Made by a program: the position numbers and the translations under genes. This document shows positions 56,232-63,853 of a stretch of DNA of 64,000 bases, piece after piece. The stretch is from Candidatus Solirubrobacter pratensis. Its GTDB lineage: Bacteria; Actinomycetota; Thermoleophilia; Solirubrobacterales; Solirubrobacteraceae. The notes below the pieces were generated by a model. That model did no database searches. It saw only the letters and a list, made by a program, of their open reading frames with translations, and was not told where the DNA came from. Position 1 is the stretch's first letter. Each line of letters starts with the position of its first letter. Where the stretch lies: assembly GCF_000425945.1 (NCBI RefSeq), contig NZ_AUEK01000009.1, positions 186,001 to 250,000 of the forward strand, written 5' to 3'.

Positions 56232-56320
56232 GCGCTCTACAATCCGTTGGTCCGCGGCCCTGAACCCCGTTGCGGCATTCGAAGCGCCCCTGCAACCCGG
56301 CGCCGACCCTTCCGGACTTG

Positions 56321-57133
56321 GTGTTGGGCTTGCAGAACCTCGAAGACCGCGACTCGGGATCCCGAGCATATCCGCAGGACCGCGACGGCCGCGAGGCGCG
56401 CGCCCGCGCCGACCGCCGCCTGCTGGAGCGCGCCCACCTGGGCGACCAGGAGGCACGCGCCGCGCTGGTGGACCGCTTCCTGCCGCTCGCCCGCCAGCTC
56501 GCGCGCCGATACCAGCGCGGGGGCGAGCAGCTCGACGACCTCAACCAGGTGGCCTCACTCGGCCTGCTGAAGGCGATCGACCGCTTCGATCCGGCGCGCC
56601 AGACCGCGTTCTCGAGCTTCGCGGTGCCGACGATCCTGGGAGAGCTCAAGCGCCACTTCCGCGACCGCGGCTGGTCGGTGCGCGTCCCTCGCGACCTGCA
56701 GGAGCTGGCCGTCAAGCTCGAGCCGACCACCGAGTCGCTGCAGCGCGAGCTCGGGCGGGCGCCGACGCTCGCGGAGCTCGCCCGCCGGCTCGACACCACG
56801 ATCGAGCTGGTGCTCGAGGCGCGGGAGGCGGCCGCCGCCTATCGCGCCGTCTCGCTCGACCGCCCGCGCGACGATGACGACGATGGCACCGACCCGCTCG
56901 GCGACGCGGTCGGCGCGGAGGACCCCGGCTTCGCGGTGGCCGAGAACGCCGCGACCGTCGAGCGGCTGATGCGCGTGCTGAGCGAGCGCGAGCGAGAGGT
57001 GCTGCGCCTGCGCTTCGCGGAGGACCTCACGCAGGCCGAGATCGGGATGCGGGTGGGCGTCTCCCAGATGCACGTCTCGCGCCTCATCCGGCAGGCGGTC
57101 AGGCGGCTGCGGGAAGCGGCCGAGGAGGCGTAG
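56321..57133 (+). CDS. SigB/SigF-type sigma factor (first)
   Basis: The roughly 270-residue sigma factor has region 2 (RRLLERAHLGDQEARAALVD, LPLARQLARRYQRGGEQLDD, LNQVASLGLLKAIDRFDPA, FSSFAVPTILGELKRHFRDR), region 3 (LGRAPTLAELARRLD) and region 4 (LSEREREVLRLRFAEDLTQA, EIGMRVGVSQMHVSRLIRQA). It belongs to the general-stress SigB/SigF group. The start is uncertain (GTG 56321 or TTG upstream at 56270). No anti-sigma gene is adjacent; the RsbW-like genes are 2-3 kb away. A cupin gene follows by 12 bases. Confidence 0.92.
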   Translation: MLGLQNLEDRDSGSRAYPQDRDGREARARADRRLLERAHLGDQEARAALVDRFLPLARQLARRYQRGGEQLDDLNQVASLGLLKAIDRFDPARQTAFSSFAVPTILGELKRHFRDRGWSVRVPRDLQELAVKLEPTTESLQRELGRAPTLAELARRLDTTIELVLEAREAAAAYRAVSLDRPRDDDDDGTDPLGDAVGAEDPGFAVAENAATVERLMRVLSEREREVLRLRFAEDLTQAEIGMRVGVSQMHVSRLIRQAVRRLREAAEEA

Positions 57134-57518: not shown

Positions 57519-58013
57519 TCAGCTCGAATGAAGGCGCTCGGCGGCCAGGCCGCGCGGCTCGGCGTCGGGCGCGGGCGTGCCGGGCGTATGCAGCAGGTTC
57601 TGCACGCCCTTGATCCCGTCGACGTGACCCGCCTGGTCGCCGAGCCGCTCGATCCACGACTGCTCCTCGACCTCGCCGCGCAGCGTCGCGACGCCCGCCT
57701 GGACGTCGACCGAGACGCTGCCCTTGGGCGCGTCGGCGGCGCGGAAGATCTCGGTCTCCACCTTGCGCGCGAGCGTGACGTCGTCGGCGTCCGCCGGCCG
57801 CGTCGCGGTCGGCGCGGCGGTGTGCGCGGCGCCCTTGGCGACCTGCGCGGCGTGCGTCGCCTGCGTCTGCATCGCGGAGGCGACGTGCGAAGCCTTCGAC
57901 TGCGCCTGGTCGCGCATCGTGTTGCGGCGCCGCCGGCCGCTCTGAGGATCGAGGAAGTGCGCCGCGGCGGCTCCTGCTGCGAGCCCGAGCGCGAAGCTGA
58001 TCGGGGTTCTCAT
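57519..58013 (-). CDS. BON-domain protein with YtxH-like start
   Basis: The 164-residue protein begins with a Gly/Ala-rich helix (FALGLAAGAAAAHFLDPQSG, RRRRNTMRDQAQSKASHVAS) as in YtxH-type general-stress proteins, then an Ala-rich linker and a C-terminal BON domain (VTLARKVETEIFRAADAPKG, VDVQAGVATLRGEVEEQSWI, VDGIKGVQNLLHTPG). BON domains bind membranes or phospholipid. Ten bases upstream of its ATG lies a near-perfect SigB promoter, supporting stress induction. Confidence 0.87.
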   Translation of the reverse strand: MRTPISFALGLAAGAAAAHFLDPQSGRRRRNTMRDQAQSKASHVASAMQTQATHAAQVAKGAAHTAAPTATRPADADDVTLARKVETEIFRAADAPKGSVSVDVQAGVATLRGEVEEQSWIERLGDQAGHVDGIKGVQNLLHTPGTPAPDAEPRGLAAERLHSS

Positions 58014-58023
58014 ACGACCTCGG

Positions 58024-58048
58024 CTACCCGGGCCCGGATGCCGGAAAC
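58024..58048 (-). promoter_or_regulatory. SigB/SigF-type promoter of the BON gene
   Basis: On the minus strand GTTT (58048-58045), a 15-base spacer and GGGTAG (58029-58024) match the GTTT-N15-GGGTAT consensus of general-stress sigma factors. The ATG is ten bases downstream of the -10, so the message has a very short leader. Confidence 0.7.
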
Positions 58049-58053
58049 GCCGC

Positions 58054-58950
58054 TCAGTACGGCCAGCGGCGGGGACGCCGCGGGGGCAGCCGGTGGCGCC
58101 GCCGGTAGCGCCGCTGCTCGGCCTGGCGCAGGCGATCGAGCACGTCGTCGGACCATTCGTGGGTGCGCAGGAGCAGGTAGCGGTCGGCGGCGACGCGCAG
58201 GTAGGCGTCGGCCTCGGTCTCGCCGCGCTCGACGAGGTCGCCCGAGGAGATCAGCTCCGAGACCGGCACGTACTCCTCGTCGAACCAGATCCGGGCGACC
58301 TCGGCACGCTCGTAGAAATGGCCGCGCTCCTGCATCAGCCGGAAGCCCCATGCCTCGACGGCCTCGGCGAGCGTGCCGAAGTCCCACGGATCCGACAGCC
58401 TGATCCGCGCGCGGCGCTGCGCGTCGAGCGGGACGCGCTCGCGGAACAGCCGCTCGTGGTCCTTGAGCGGCAGCTGCGACACGCGCAGGTCGGCGCCGAG
58501 CTTGAGCCGGGTCGTGACCTCGGTGACGTAGGCGTCGATGTCCTCATGGCCGAGCGACTTGGCCACCGAGACGCGATGGTGGCCGTCGCGCACGAAGTAG
58601 AGGTCGCCGACCTGGAAGAGCGAGATCGGCGGCAGCGCCTCGCCGCGCCGCTGGGCGGCGGCGATCCGCTCCCAGCGCGAGCGCAGGCGCGCCGAGGTGG
58701 GGCGGAAGCCGCGATCGAAGTCGACCGCGCGGTCGACGGTGCCGACGATCGCGTCCAGCGGCACGATCTGGAGTCCGCGGTCGACCTGCCCGGTCCGGCC
58801 GAGCGCGTCGACGACCTCCTCGAACGGCAGGATGAGCCCGACGTCGTCGGGCTCCCGGCGCAACCTCCGCGCGACGTCGGACAGCAGCCGCGCCCGCCGG
58901 GCGCGGCTGAAGTCGTGCTGGGCGTCGGAGGCGGAGAACCCGGAGCTCAC
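58054..58950 (-). CDS. ParB/Srx-type nuclease-domain protein in the rsb operon
   Basis: The 298-residue protein has a ParB-N-like core: LQIVPLDAIVGTVDRAVDFD, PPISLFQVGDLYFVRDGHHR, VSVAKSLGHEDIDAYVTEVT. The GHHR (as in G-x-H-R of Srx/ParB) could be the catalytic or CTP-binding site. The C-terminal half (DPWDFGTLAEAVEAWGFRLM, EYVPVSELISSGDLV) is of unknown function and ends in a very basic tail (RRYRRRHRLPPRRPRRWPY). It is 16 bases after the STAS gene and shares its strand, so it is a probable member of the rsb operon. Chromosome partitioning is unlikely. Confidence 0.75.
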   Translation of the reverse strand: MSSGFSASDAQHDFSRARRARLLSDVARRLRREPDDVGLILPFEEVVDALGRTGQVDRGLQIVPLDAIVGTVDRAVDFDRGFRPTSARLRSRWERIAAAQRRGEALPPISLFQVGDLYFVRDGHHRVSVAKSLGHEDIDAYVTEVTTRLKLGADLRVSQLPLKDHERLFRERVPLDAQRRARIRLSDPWDFGTLAEAVEAWGFRLMQERGHFYERAEVARIWFDEEYVPVSELISSGDLVERGETEADAYLRVAADRYLLLRTHEWSDDVLDRLRQAEQRRYRRRHRLPPRRPRRWPY

Positions 58951-58966: not shown

Positions 58967-59329
58967 CTATCCTGCGCCGACCGCATCGCCGTTGAGCGCC
59001 TCGTCGAGCGAGCCGACGATCGTGAAGACGCTGTCCAGGCCCGTGATCCGGAACGTCTTCGCGATCGCGTCACTTGTGCAGACGATGACCAGCGATCCGC
59101 CTTGGCGGCGGAGTCGGCGGTGCGCCCCGATCAGGACGCCGAGCGACGAGGAGTCGATGAAGGTGGTCGCGGACAGGTCCACGACCACGTGCAGCCGGCC
59201 GGCATCGATCGGTGCCGCGACGCGCTGCTTGAACTCGGGTGCGGTGAAGAGGTCGATCTCGCCCGCGACCGCGACGACATGGGTGTCGTCGCCGATCGGG
59301 CGATCGTCGATTTCGAAGTCGATGGCCAT
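58967..59329 (-). CDS. STAS-domain anti-sigma factor antagonist (RsbV-like)
   Basis: The 120-residue protein matches SpoIIAA/RsbV: VVAVAGEIDLFTAPEFKQRV, HVVVDLSATTFIDSSSLGVL with the phosphorylatable Ser cluster, and IGAHRRLRRQGGSLVIVCTS. Unphosphorylated antagonist binds the RsbW kinase and frees the sigma factor. It lies between two RsbW-like genes and the ParB-like gene. ATG 59329 gives the usual length; the frame is open upstream. Expected target: one of the two SigB-like factors in this window. Confidence 0.93.
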   Translation of the reverse strand: MAIDFEIDDRPIGDDTHVVAVAGEIDLFTAPEFKQRVAAPIDAGRLHVVVDLSATTFIDSSSLGVLIGAHRRLRRQGGSLVIVCTSDAIAKTFRITGLDSVFTIVGSLDEALNGDAVGAG

Positions 59330-59402
59330 GCGCGAGGGGTCATCCCCCCTCAGCGCGATTCTCAATCGCATGGGGTCCGAGCGCTGGCCCGGCAAGCCGC
59401 CT

Positions 59403-59810
59403 TCACTCGCCCGCGCCCGCGTACTCCAGGCGGACGTGGAGGAACTCGCGCTCCCCCTCGGGCGACACGCGCAGCTCGTCGGCGAGCTGCTCGATCACGT
59501 TGCCCACTCCTGGCACGGCGGCGTCCACCACCAGGGCGTCGCCGCCGCCGGGGCGCAGCGGCCCGACGCGCAGCGAGAGCGTGCGCGGGCCGGGCTCGAA
59601 CGCGACGTCGACCGTCCCGTGCAGCACGTGCGCGGGGGCGCGCGCGGCGATCAGGTCGGCGACGAGCACCGCGTCGTCCAGGCGGTCCAGCGGCAGGTCG
59701 GCGCGGGCGGCGAGCATGCCCACGACGCGCCGCAGGATCGGGCCGACGAGGGGGCCGGCTGCGATCGACACCGTCGTCGGCGCGTCGCTTCCCGTGCCGC
59801 CCCGCGTCAC
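59403..59810 (-). CDS. Degenerate RsbW-like protein
   Basis: The 135-residue protein has the helical beginning of RsbW-type kinases (LVGPILRRVVGMLAARADLP, LDRLDDAVLVADLIAARAPA) and a beta-sheet C-terminal half (LSLRVGPLRPGGGDALVVDA, LADELRVSPEGEREFLHVRL). The ATP-binding N-box Asn and the D-x-G-x-G are missing, so it probably cannot phosphorylate. Its GTG overlaps the stop of the intact RsbW-like gene (GTGA). It may be a pseudokinase that modulates the partner switch. Confidence 0.75.
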   Translation of the reverse strand: MTRGGTGSDAPTTVSIAAGPLVGPILRRVVGMLAARADLPLDRLDDAVLVADLIAARAPAHVLHGTVDVAFEPGPRTLSLRVGPLRPGGGDALVVDAAVPGVGNVIEQLADELRVSPEGEREFLHVRLEYAGAGE

Positions 59811-60268
59811 GCCGCTTCACCCGGCGCCCGCCGCGCGAAGGTCATCGCCACACGGCTGCCTCCGCCCGGCGCGGACTGCAGGTCGACGGTGTCGGCGATG
59901 GCGGCGATCAGCGGCAGGCCCAGGCCCGGGCCGGACGTGTCCGAGCTCGTGCCGATGCCGCGGCCGGTGTCGGCCACGATGACCTGCACCAGCTCGTCAC
60001 CGGGCTCGATGGTGACCTCCACGGCGCCGGGAACTCCGGCCGCGTACGCGTGGCGCACGACGTTCGTGCATGCCTCGGTGACCGCCAGCCGGAGGTCCTC
60101 GATCAGTTCGTCGGACAGCTGCATGGACTCGGCGAACGCCCCCAGGACGTGACGGACGACCGCGACGTTCTCCGGCAGCGCGGGAAGCGTGAGCGTGACG
60201 TCCGTGCGCGGCGCCTCGAAGCGGTCCATCACGTCGACCGAGCAGAGCTGGTGCTGTGCGTTGCCCAT
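59807..60268 (-). CDS. RsbW-like anti-sigma kinase
   Basis: The 153-residue protein is a compact HATPase: DLRLAVTEACTNVVRHAYAA (N-box, near 64), VQVIVADTGRGIGTSSDTSG (G1) and GPGLGLPLIAAIADTVDLQS (G2). It binds the sigma factor and phosphorylates the STAS antagonist; release occurs when ATP is low or stress phosphatases act. It is the first gene of the operon, just downstream of a SigB-type promoter, so a feedback loop is likely. Start at ATG 60268 (M14 is an alternative). Confidence 0.92.
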   Translation of the reverse strand: MGNAQHQLCSVDVMDRFEAPRTDVTLTLPALPENVAVVRHVLGAFAESMQLSDELIEDLRLAVTEACTNVVRHAYAAGVPGAVEVTIEPGDELVQVIVADTGRGIGTSSDTSGPGLGLPLIAAIADTVDLQSAPGGGSRVAMTFARRAPGEAA

Positions 60269-62259: not shown

Positions 62260-62314
62260 GCCCGCGGCCATGCGTTTGAACCAGGACGCGGGCGGTAATG
62301 ACTGCGTCCGACCG

Positions 62315-63184
62315 ATGACCACGGTGGACGCTGCTATGGATACTGTCGAAGCGAGTTCGCCGGTCGTCGCGCCGGCGCGAGAGGAGAAGACGCCCGTCCC
62401 GATGACATCGGTCCCGCCGGCCCGCTCCGAAGACGGTCCGAGCCGCTCCGAAGAGGACCGCAGGCTCCTCATCCGCTACCACCGCCACGGCGACCAGGCT
62501 GCACGCGAGCAGCTCGTGCAGCGCCTGCTCCCGCTGGCGCGGCGGATGGCCCGGCGCTACCGGCGCTCCGATGAGCCGCTCGACGACCTCGTGCAGGTCG
62601 CCACGCTCGGCCTGATCAAGGCGATCGACCGCTTCGATCCCGCGCGCGAGACGGCGTTCTCCTCCTATGCGGTGCCGACGATGCTCGGGGAGCTCAAGCG
62701 CTACTTCCGCGACAACGGCTGGGCGGTCCACGTGCCGCGCGGGATGCAGGAGCGCGTGATGCAGGTGGACACCACGGTCAAGGACCTGTCGCGGCGGCTC
62801 GGGCGCTCGCCGTCGGCGAAGGAGGTCGCCGAGTCGCTGCAGCTGACGACCGAGCAGGTGCTCGAGGCGATGGAGGCGGCATCGGCCTACGACGCGGTCT
62901 CGCTCGAGTCCTACCGCTTCGGCGACGAGGGCGACGGCGAGACCTACGCCGAGTCCATCGGCGAGGTCGACGAGCGCTTCGAGCTGGTCGAGTACGGCGC
63001 CACGATCGCGCCGACGCTGCAGGCCCTGCCGGCGCGCGACCGCATCGTGCTGCACCTGCGCTTCGTCGAGGACATGACGCAGGCGGAGATCGCCGAGCGC
63101 GTCGGCGTCTCCCAGATGCACGTCTCGCGGCTGATCCGGCGGGCGCTCGAGCGCCTGCGCACGGTCGCCGATCACGCGGGCTGA
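62315..63184 (+). CDS. SigB/SigF-type sigma factor (second)
   Basis: The roughly 289-residue factor has a long disordered, acidic start and then region 2 (RRLLIRYHRHGDQAAREQLV, LPLARRMARRYRRSDEPLDD, LVQVATLGLIKAIDRFDPAR, FSSYAVPTMLGELKRYFRDN), region 3 (LGRSPSAKEVAESLQLT) and region 4 (LPARDRIVLHLRFVEDMTQA, EIAERVGVSQMHVSRLIRRA). It is closely related to the factor at 56.3 kb. The start is open: ATG 62315 or 62270. An RsbW-like gene lies 32 bases away, convergent. Confidence 0.92.
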   Translation: MTTVDAAMDTVEASSPVVAPAREEKTPVPMTSVPPARSEDGPSRSEEDRRLLIRYHRHGDQAAREQLVQRLLPLARRMARRYRRSDEPLDDLVQVATLGLIKAIDRFDPARETAFSSYAVPTMLGELKRYFRDNGWAVHVPRGMQERVMQVDTTVKDLSRRLGRSPSAKEVAESLQLTTEQVLEAMEAASAYDAVSLESYRFGDEGDGETYAESIGEVDERFELVEYGATIAPTLQALPARDRIVLHLRFVEDMTQAEIAERVGVSQMHVSRLIRRALERLRTVADHAG

Positions 63185-63216: not shown

Positions 63217-63597
63217 CTACGCGCGGCGTCGCGGTCCGACCTCGAACCACACGTGCGTCGAGCCCTCGTGGACGCCCCAGCACGTCGCGACCCGCTCCAC
63301 CAGGTGCAGCCCCCAGCCGCCCTCGAGGCTCGGCTCGGGCGTCATCTCGATCTTGGCGCGCTCGCCGTCGCCCTGGTCGATCACCTCGCCGCGCACCTTG
63401 CCCTCAGCGCCGACCTCGAGCGAAAGCGTGATCGAGCGCTTGGGCCCGAACTTGACGCTGTTCGTGACGAGCTCGGACACGACGAGCTGGAGATCTTCCA
63501 GCACCTCTGGAGCGAGGATCTGATCGAAGACCTCAAGGGCACCGCGCGCCTGTGCAGGCGCGTCGTCTGCCGGGGGAAATTGGAAGCTGAACTGCAT
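63217..63597 (-). CDS. Second RsbW-like ATP-binding protein
   Basis: The 126-residue protein is another compact HATPase: EDLQLVVSELVTNSVKFGPK (N-box), VRGEVIDQGDGERAKIE (D-x-G-D-G) and EGGWGLHLVERVATCWG (G2). It may bind the sigma factor whose gene ends 32 bases away. GGAGGGG lies upstream of ATG 63597. Convergent arrangement suggests it is expressed separately. It lacks a STAS partner nearby, so the switch may use the antagonist at 59 kb or one elsewhere. Confidence 0.9.
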   Translation of the reverse strand: MQFSFQFPPADDAPAQARGALEVFDQILAPEVLEDLQLVVSELVTNSVKFGPKRSITLSLEVGAEGKVRGEVIDQGDGERAKIEMTPEPSLEGGWGLHLVERVATCWGVHEGSTHVWFEVGPRRRA

Positions 63598-63688
63598 CGG
63601 GGGCGGTCGGCCCCTCCCTGACCGCCATGGAGAGTACGCGTTCCGGCTAAAGCATGGGCGGGCACCGGTCCGGGGTACGACCGTTTCC

Positions 63689-63853
63689 ATGGAGACCAGC
63701 GAATCAGACGTCGGATATCCCGAGGAGCAGCCCGGCGAGGTCGGCGACGAGACGACCGAGCCCGACCGCCCGCGCAAGGGCGGCCACGGCGAGGGCAAGA
63801 CGCCCGAGACCGAGAGCGGCGACGGCAAGGCGACCGGGAATCCGAACACCTAG
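63689..63853 (+). CDS. Small acidic disordered protein
   Basis: A 54-residue frame from ATG 63689 encodes METSESDVGYPEEQPGEVGD, ETTEPDRPRKGGHGEGKTPE, TESGDGKATGNPNT. It is rich in Glu, Gly and Pro, with no hydrophobic core, so it is disordered in solution. The opening (S-D-V-G-Y-P-E-E) resembles short stress-induced proteins seen in related actinobacteria, but this rests on memory. Divergent from the RsbW-like gene. Confidence 0.6.
   Translation: METSESDVGYPEEQPGEVGDETTEPDRPRKGGHGEGKTPETESGDGKATGNPNT

What the first reader, a model, noticed from the sequence alone, without database searches (positions are those of the whole stretch)
59403..59810. Pseudokinase version of RsbW coupled to an intact one
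The protein keeps the fold but lost the N-box Asn and D-x-G-x-G, and its start overlaps the intact kinase's stop. It could act as a decoy or hetero-dimer partner that sets the threshold of the stress switch.
Basis: partly seen in the sequence, partly recalled or inferred. Interest (0 to 1): 0.55.

Follow-up and report, generated by a model that had tools for sequence, protein, structure and literature searches.

The report
Dead RsbW twin tied to live RsbW
A bacterial stress-switch kinase is made together with a degenerate twin that has lost its ATP site, and in many related bacteria the two are one fused protein, which suggests a permanently lopsided pair rather than a decaying gene or a free-floating decoy.

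Summary
On the minus strand, 59403-59810 encodes a 135-aa protein whose GTG start overlaps the stop of an intact RsbW (59807-60268) by 4 nt; a STAS antagonist gene follows. It matches no Pfam, NCBIfam or PDB sequence alone, but its family profile aligns end to end with RsbW (hhalign E 1.5e-4; above all 200 column-shuffled controls). ATP-site residues are gone: none of 148 relatives has catalytic Glu, N-box Asn and G1 Asp together, against 132 of 134 adjoining RsbWs. It is not a relic: dN/dS within Solirubrobacter is 0.05, below RsbW (0.14) and STAS (0.12). In a census of 150 loci from Solirubrobacterales and their class, 69 degenerate domains lie just downstream of an intact RsbW (56 with the same 4-nt overlap), 65 are fused to it, and 13 stand without it, 12 of them near a SigB-type sigma gene. 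Fusion fixes a 1:1 ratio, so I favour an obligate asymmetric anti-sigma dimer (one live, one dead protomer) over a titrating decoy. Dimerisation, sigma binding and STAS binding are inferred, not shown. The nearest experimental precedent is M. smegmatis RsbW3. A new variant of a known kind; interest 0.55.

The parts
59403..59810 (-). degenerate RsbW-like protein (P0002), 135 aa, GTG start
   Evidence: no family hit; profile homology to RsbW
59807..60268 (-). intact RsbW-type anti-sigma serine kinase (P0003), 153 aa, with N-box and both Gly boxes
   Evidence: PF13581 93.1 bits, RsbW NCBIfam models below their cut-offs; PDB 6m36 RsbW E 3.3e-14
59807..59810 (-). GTGA overlap: stop of the RsbW gene and start of the degenerate gene; likely translational coupling
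   Evidence: sequence; same overlap in 56 of 69 adjacent pairs
58967..59395 (-). STAS anti-sigma-factor antagonist (P0004), same direction, start codon uncertain; carries a D-S-S-S-L phosphorylation-site-like motif (motif recalled)
   Evidence: PF01740 82.5 bits; TIGR00377 86.7 bits over its cut-off 53.45
56270..57133 (+). SigB/SigF/SigG-type sigma factor, a candidate target
   Evidence: TIGR02980 270.6 bits over its cut-off 234.35
62270..63184 (+). second SigB/SigF/SigG-type sigma factor, the other candidate target
   Evidence: TIGR02980 274.7 bits over its cut-off 234.35

Best explanation
P0002 is the catalytically dead half of an obligate asymmetric anti-sigma dimer. Known RsbW/SpoIIAB proteins are homodimers that hold one sigma factor and phosphorylate their STAS antagonist. 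Here one protomer (P0003) keeps the ATP site and should phosphorylate the STAS protein; the other (P0002) has lost the ATP site and should serve as the structural partner that completes the dimer and the sigma-holding surface. Coupled translation, or fusion in relatives, keeps the two at 1:1, so each captured sigma factor would be governed by a single kinase site. Shown: homology, motif loss, purifying selection, gene overlap, fusion, widespread pairing. Inferred: dimerisation, sigma holding, STAS phosphorylation, which sigma is the target.
For: 65 of 148 degenerate domains are C-terminal halves of a polypeptide whose N-terminal half is an intact RsbW; 69 of 148 are the next gene, 56 of 69 with the 4-nt overlap. 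In the pairs all three catalytic residues are present in 132 of 134 RsbWs (the other two have gaps), while 0 of 148 degenerate domains have all three and 133 of 148 have none. dN/dS 0.048 (mean of 20 pairs) against 0.144 for RsbW and 0.123 for STAS in the same 7 Solirubrobacter loci. Helix alpha1, which with beta1 makes the RsbW homodimer interface (PMC7340262, passages read), is the best conserved segment of the degenerate domain (mean JSD 0.531, about that of RsbW, 0.543). Heterodimer precedent: M. smegmatis RsbW3 copurifies with the anti-SigF RsbW1 (PMC7693655, passages read).
Against: No interaction is shown; no complex could be modelled. Beta1, the other half of the known interface, is poorly conserved in the degenerate domain (JSD 0.289 against 0.546). 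The Arg that aligns with R20 of SpoIIAB (a sigma contact, recalled) is mostly absent (9 of 55 in A1); an Arg one residue on is present in 52 of 55. 13 of 148 degenerate domains have no intact RsbW just upstream; one of them, 68% identical to P0002, keeps the STAS gene but not RsbW (L031/L150). RsbW may still form homodimers too.
Confidence: 0.55

Rival explanations
1. Antagonist or titrator: the dead protein competes with RsbW self-pairing and makes inactive heterodimers, releasing sigma, as proposed for M. smegmatis RsbW3.
For: RsbW3 does not bind SigF, copurifies with RsbW1, and its overexpression raises SigF output; the authors assume a heterodimer (PMC7693655, passages; restated in PMC10950880, passages). 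Two RsbW-type proteins encoded together fit.
Against: 65 of 148 are fused to RsbW and cannot titrate it; coupled translation does not allow independent dosage. RsbW3 is a separate gene of the SigF regulon.
Confidence: 0.15
2. Split function without an obligate dimer: the dead protein is the sigma-binding anti-sigma factor, and the intact RsbW is only the kinase of the STAS protein, like RsbW1 and RsbW2 of M. smegmatis.
For: 12 of 13 relatives without an upstream RsbW lie within 1.5 kb of a SigB-type sigma gene and point the same way; M. smegmatis RsbW1 binds SigF but is no kinase, RsbW2 is the reverse.
Against: Fusion and overlap tie it to RsbW rather than to sigma; the partner RsbW keeps its own R20-equivalent in 133 of 134.
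Confidence: 0.15
3. STAS sponge or adaptor: the dead domain binds the STAS protein without phosphorylating it.
For: STAS gene within 1.5 kb of 51 of 69 adjacent and 32 of 65 fused copies; L031/L150 keeps the gene plus STAS without RsbW nearby.
Against: Only 1 of 13 relatives without an upstream RsbW has a STAS gene nearby, against 12 with a sigma gene.
Confidence: 0.07
4. Decaying duplicate or chance frame in GC-rich DNA.
For: No catalytic residues; no family hit.
Against: dN/dS 0.048, homologues in 153 of 232 genomes of the order, recurrent overlap and fusion.
Confidence: 0.01

Closest known systems
RsbW / SpoIIAB anti-sigma serine kinases (Pfam PF13581 HATPase_c_2)
   Same: Profile homology over the whole domain, context (SigB-type sigma, STAS antagonist), likely fold
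   Different: ATP-site residues lost; too divergent for the Pfam model; paired with or fused to an intact RsbW in most loci
Mycobacterium smegmatis RsbW3 (MSMEG_1787)
   Same: RsbW homologue without detected kinase activity that binds the anti-sigma RsbW1 and is thought to form a heterodimer (PMC7693655, passages)
   Different: Separate SigF-dependent gene, not coupled or fused to RsbW1; acts as antagonist; its sequence was not compared here
Mycobacterium tuberculosis UsfX (PDB 8ih8, 8jzt)
   Same: Among the top structural neighbours of the model (Z 10.0 and 8.7); a divergent RsbW
   Different: Is itself the SigF anti-sigma factor; no intact kinase twin fused to it in what I read

Membership tests
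RsbW/SpoIIAB anti-sigma kinase | PF13581 match above gathering score | tested here: not met
   P0002: no hit at E<=1; of 55 relatives 8 give sub-threshold hits, best E 0.058
RsbW/SpoIIAB anti-sigma kinase | catalytic Glu, N-box Asn, G1 D-x-G-x-G | tested here: not met
   0 of 148 have Glu, Asn and Asp together
RsbW/SpoIIAB anti-sigma kinase | common ancestry with RsbW | tested here: met
   hhalign E 1.5e-4 over 107 columns; 0 of 200 column shuffles reach its score
RsbW/SpoIIAB anti-sigma kinase | GHKL fold | tested here: inconclusive
   pLDDT 40 without RsbW rows; RsbW-like model at pLDDT 60 with RsbW rows
RsbW/SpoIIAB anti-sigma kinase | binds sigma factor and phosphorylates STAS protein | not testable with these tools
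   needs biochemistry
RsbW3-type RsbW antagonist | binds the anti-sigma RsbW and raises sigma activity | not testable with these tools
   needs copurification and a reporter assay
RsbW3-type RsbW antagonist | separately expressed gene whose dosage can vary | tested here: not met
   overlapping gene here; fused in 65 of 148

The most novel reading that the evidence does not exclude
Across Solirubrobacterales and part of their class, SigB-type sigma factors are held by a built-in asymmetric anti-sigma unit, one live and one dead GHKL protomer, often as one polypeptide, in which holding sigma and reading the STAS antagonist are permanently divided between the two; the dead pocket, rebuilt around a conserved G-P-L motif, may even bind a different ligand.
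Probability: 0.4. Interest if true: 0.72.

Novelty: new variant of a known kind. Interest (0 to 1): 0.55.

Why it matters
Partner switching by SpoIIAB/RsbW uses a symmetric homodimer on a single sigma factor, and it is hard to ask there which protomer does what. A natural dimer with one dead half, available even as a single chain, would let each role be mutated separately. It also points to an unannotated domain: in the 8 fused proteins scanned, Pfam sees only the N-terminal half.

Tried and rejected
Pseudogene or chance frame: rejected by dN/dS and distribution. Single-sequence searches against Pfam, NCBIfam and PDB gave nothing; the profile search of the PDB gave only RsbW 6m36 at E 0.95 and an unrelated chain at 0.67. 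Viral contigs: no relative. AlphaFold with three orthologues: uninformative. A search of 396 genomes of the phylum found strong places (E below 1e-10) only within the class; 14 weak places (E 1e-8 to 1e-5) are listed, 2 in the class and 12 outside it; the 12 were not examined. Weak hits of the class search were fetched only in part, so the 13 copies without an upstream RsbW under-represent that type. The overlap and fusion counts come from 150 loci that I fetched (best hits, then chosen and then most remaining stronger hits), not from all hits; two loci, L087 and L090, fell below the census score and were not counted (both have a degenerate domain beside a sigma gene). Duplicates L023, L025, L029 and L031 were left out because the window, L021, L022 and L150 stand for them; L001-L020, L093-L122, L143-L149 and L151 were not in the census either (other searches or repeats). 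L074, counted as without an upstream RsbW, has an intact RsbW that points towards it from the other strand. Literature: in nine searches no listed title or abstract start described an RsbW fused to a degenerate twin; 'Thermoleophilia' with 'partner switching' gave no paper. Only open-licence PMC papers were covered.

Full report
What is there. The finding's interval is a minus-strand ORF of 135 codons with a GTG start. It follows an intact RsbW gene whose TGA stop shares four bases with that GTG (GTGA, 59807-59810). A STAS anti-sigma antagonist gene follows in the same direction. Two SigB/SigF/SigG-type sigma genes lie on the plus strand on either side, both over the NCBIfam cut-off. Named relatives are Solirubrobacter soli (95% identity) and S. 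taibaiensis (89%).

Is it an RsbW relative? The single sequence hits nothing in Pfam, NCBIfam or the PDB. A profile from 55 relatives (A1) aligned with one from 47 adjoining RsbWs (A2) over 107 columns, E 1.5e-4, probability 52%. Rerun in a script the score was 28.6; 200 column-shuffled versions reached at most 21.5, and five unrelated profiles and the reversed profile at most 15.5. Of 55 relatives 8 gave sub-threshold HATPase_c_2 hits, as did 3 of 10 other class or order relatives (best E 0.0055). AlphaFold with three near-identical orthologues failed (pLDDT 40). With RsbW rows in the alignment it gave pLDDT 60, pTM 0.55, and the best structural matches were RsbW, UsfX and SpoIIAB (Foldseek best E 9e-4; VIA-align Z 10.0 to 8.6); since RsbW rows guided that model it shows compatibility, not proof.

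Is it dead? In the merged alignment of A1 and A2 the catalytic Glu column has Glu in 0 of 55, the N-box column Asn in 1 of 55, the G1 column Asp in 3 of 55; RsbW has each in 47 of 47. The G1 Asp is replaced by Pro in 43 of 55, in a conserved G-P-L motif; the second G1 Gly (39 of 55) and a G2 Gly (50 of 55) persist. In the census, 133 of 148 lack all three residues and none has all three; 132 of 134 partner RsbWs have all three, the other two showing gaps. That the protein cannot bind ATP is an inference from this.

Is it used? In 7 Solirubrobacter loci the degenerate domain is on average 97.1% identical with dN/dS 0.048 (20 of 21 pairs; one without a usable dS left out), against 87.4% and 0.144 for RsbW and 87.6% and 0.123 for STAS. 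The dead protein is the most constrained of the three.

Where is it found? A homologue occurs in 153 of 232 genomes of the order (E<=0.01). With the profile, 159 of 399 genomes of the class match at E<=1e-5, many weakly, and 26 of 396 of the phylum, strongly only within the class. Of 150 fetched loci, 148 degenerate domains passed my score threshold: 69 adjacent to an upstream intact RsbW, 65 fused to it, 13 without one, 1 too near a contig end to tell. Among the adjacent pairs 56 of 69 have the 4-nt overlap. A fused call means that the RsbW frame has no stop before the degenerate domain ends, so chance open frames do not explain it; a sequencing error could in single cases, but the fused state sorts by clade, with two changes of state on a tree of 134 pairs. 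Pfam recognises only the N-terminal half of the 8 fused proteins scanned. A sigma gene lies within 1.5 kb of 47 of 65 fused, 34 of 69 adjacent and 12 of 13 copies without an upstream RsbW; many loci are short, so these are lower bounds. In family f5 of the class the order sigma - RsbW - degenerate domain, all in one direction, occurs (for example L123, L125, L126).

How it may work. In B. subtilis RsbW, helix alpha1 and strand beta1 make the dimer, and two RsbW hold one SigB (PMC7340262, passages). Fusion of two domains that elsewhere are separate neighbours is a classic sign of physical partnership, and coupled translation serves the same end (general knowledge). I therefore read the unit as an asymmetric dimer: P0003 kinase-competent, P0002 structural. 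Conservation on alpha1 agrees, weak conservation of beta1 does not. The titrating-decoy reading fits M. smegmatis RsbW3 but not a fused protein. The type that sits beside sigma genes without RsbW keeps alive the idea that the dead domain handles sigma.

Exceptions. In genome G112 the gene (68% identical) sits with a STAS gene but without RsbW nearby (L031/L150); a partner-type RsbW lies about 20 kb away on that contig. The window's own genome also has a second partner-type RsbW about 7 kb from P0003, with a STAS gene upstream and no degenerate twin found beside it, so RsbW of this kind may work without one.

Novelty. Kinase-dead RsbW homologues and a presumed RsbW heterodimer are in print. A widespread family of degenerate twins coupled or fused to an intact RsbW did not turn up in nine searches of the open-licence library, of which only listings and the named passages were read. 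I file it as a new variant of a known kind.

Noticed in passing
58025-58048 minus strand: The only GTTT-N15-GGGTA match in the window (SigB-type consensus recalled; 0.08 expected, 7 of 100 shuffles had one or more) lies just upstream of a BON/YtxH-domain gene (57519-58013 minus), a plausible target of one of the sigma factors.
   Followed up: partly
G000:C7:252816-253190 (just beyond the window's end; L144, L149): A second partner-type RsbW with a STAS gene upstream and a sigma-like gene nearby, without a degenerate twin; 74% identical to a copy in genome G112.
   Followed up: partly
L133, L134, L136-L141, L085, L086: Degenerate RsbW-like proteins directly upstream of and co-directional with a SigB-type sigma gene, with no intact RsbW directly upstream; most share the G-P-L/F motif.
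   Followed up: partly
58054-58950 minus strand: A 298-aa protein behind the STAS gene, without Pfam hit, found in the same place in S. soli (L021) and in L030.
   Followed up: no
63217-63849 minus strand: A further divergent RsbW-type ATPase beside the second sigma gene (PF13581 38.0 bits).
   Followed up: no
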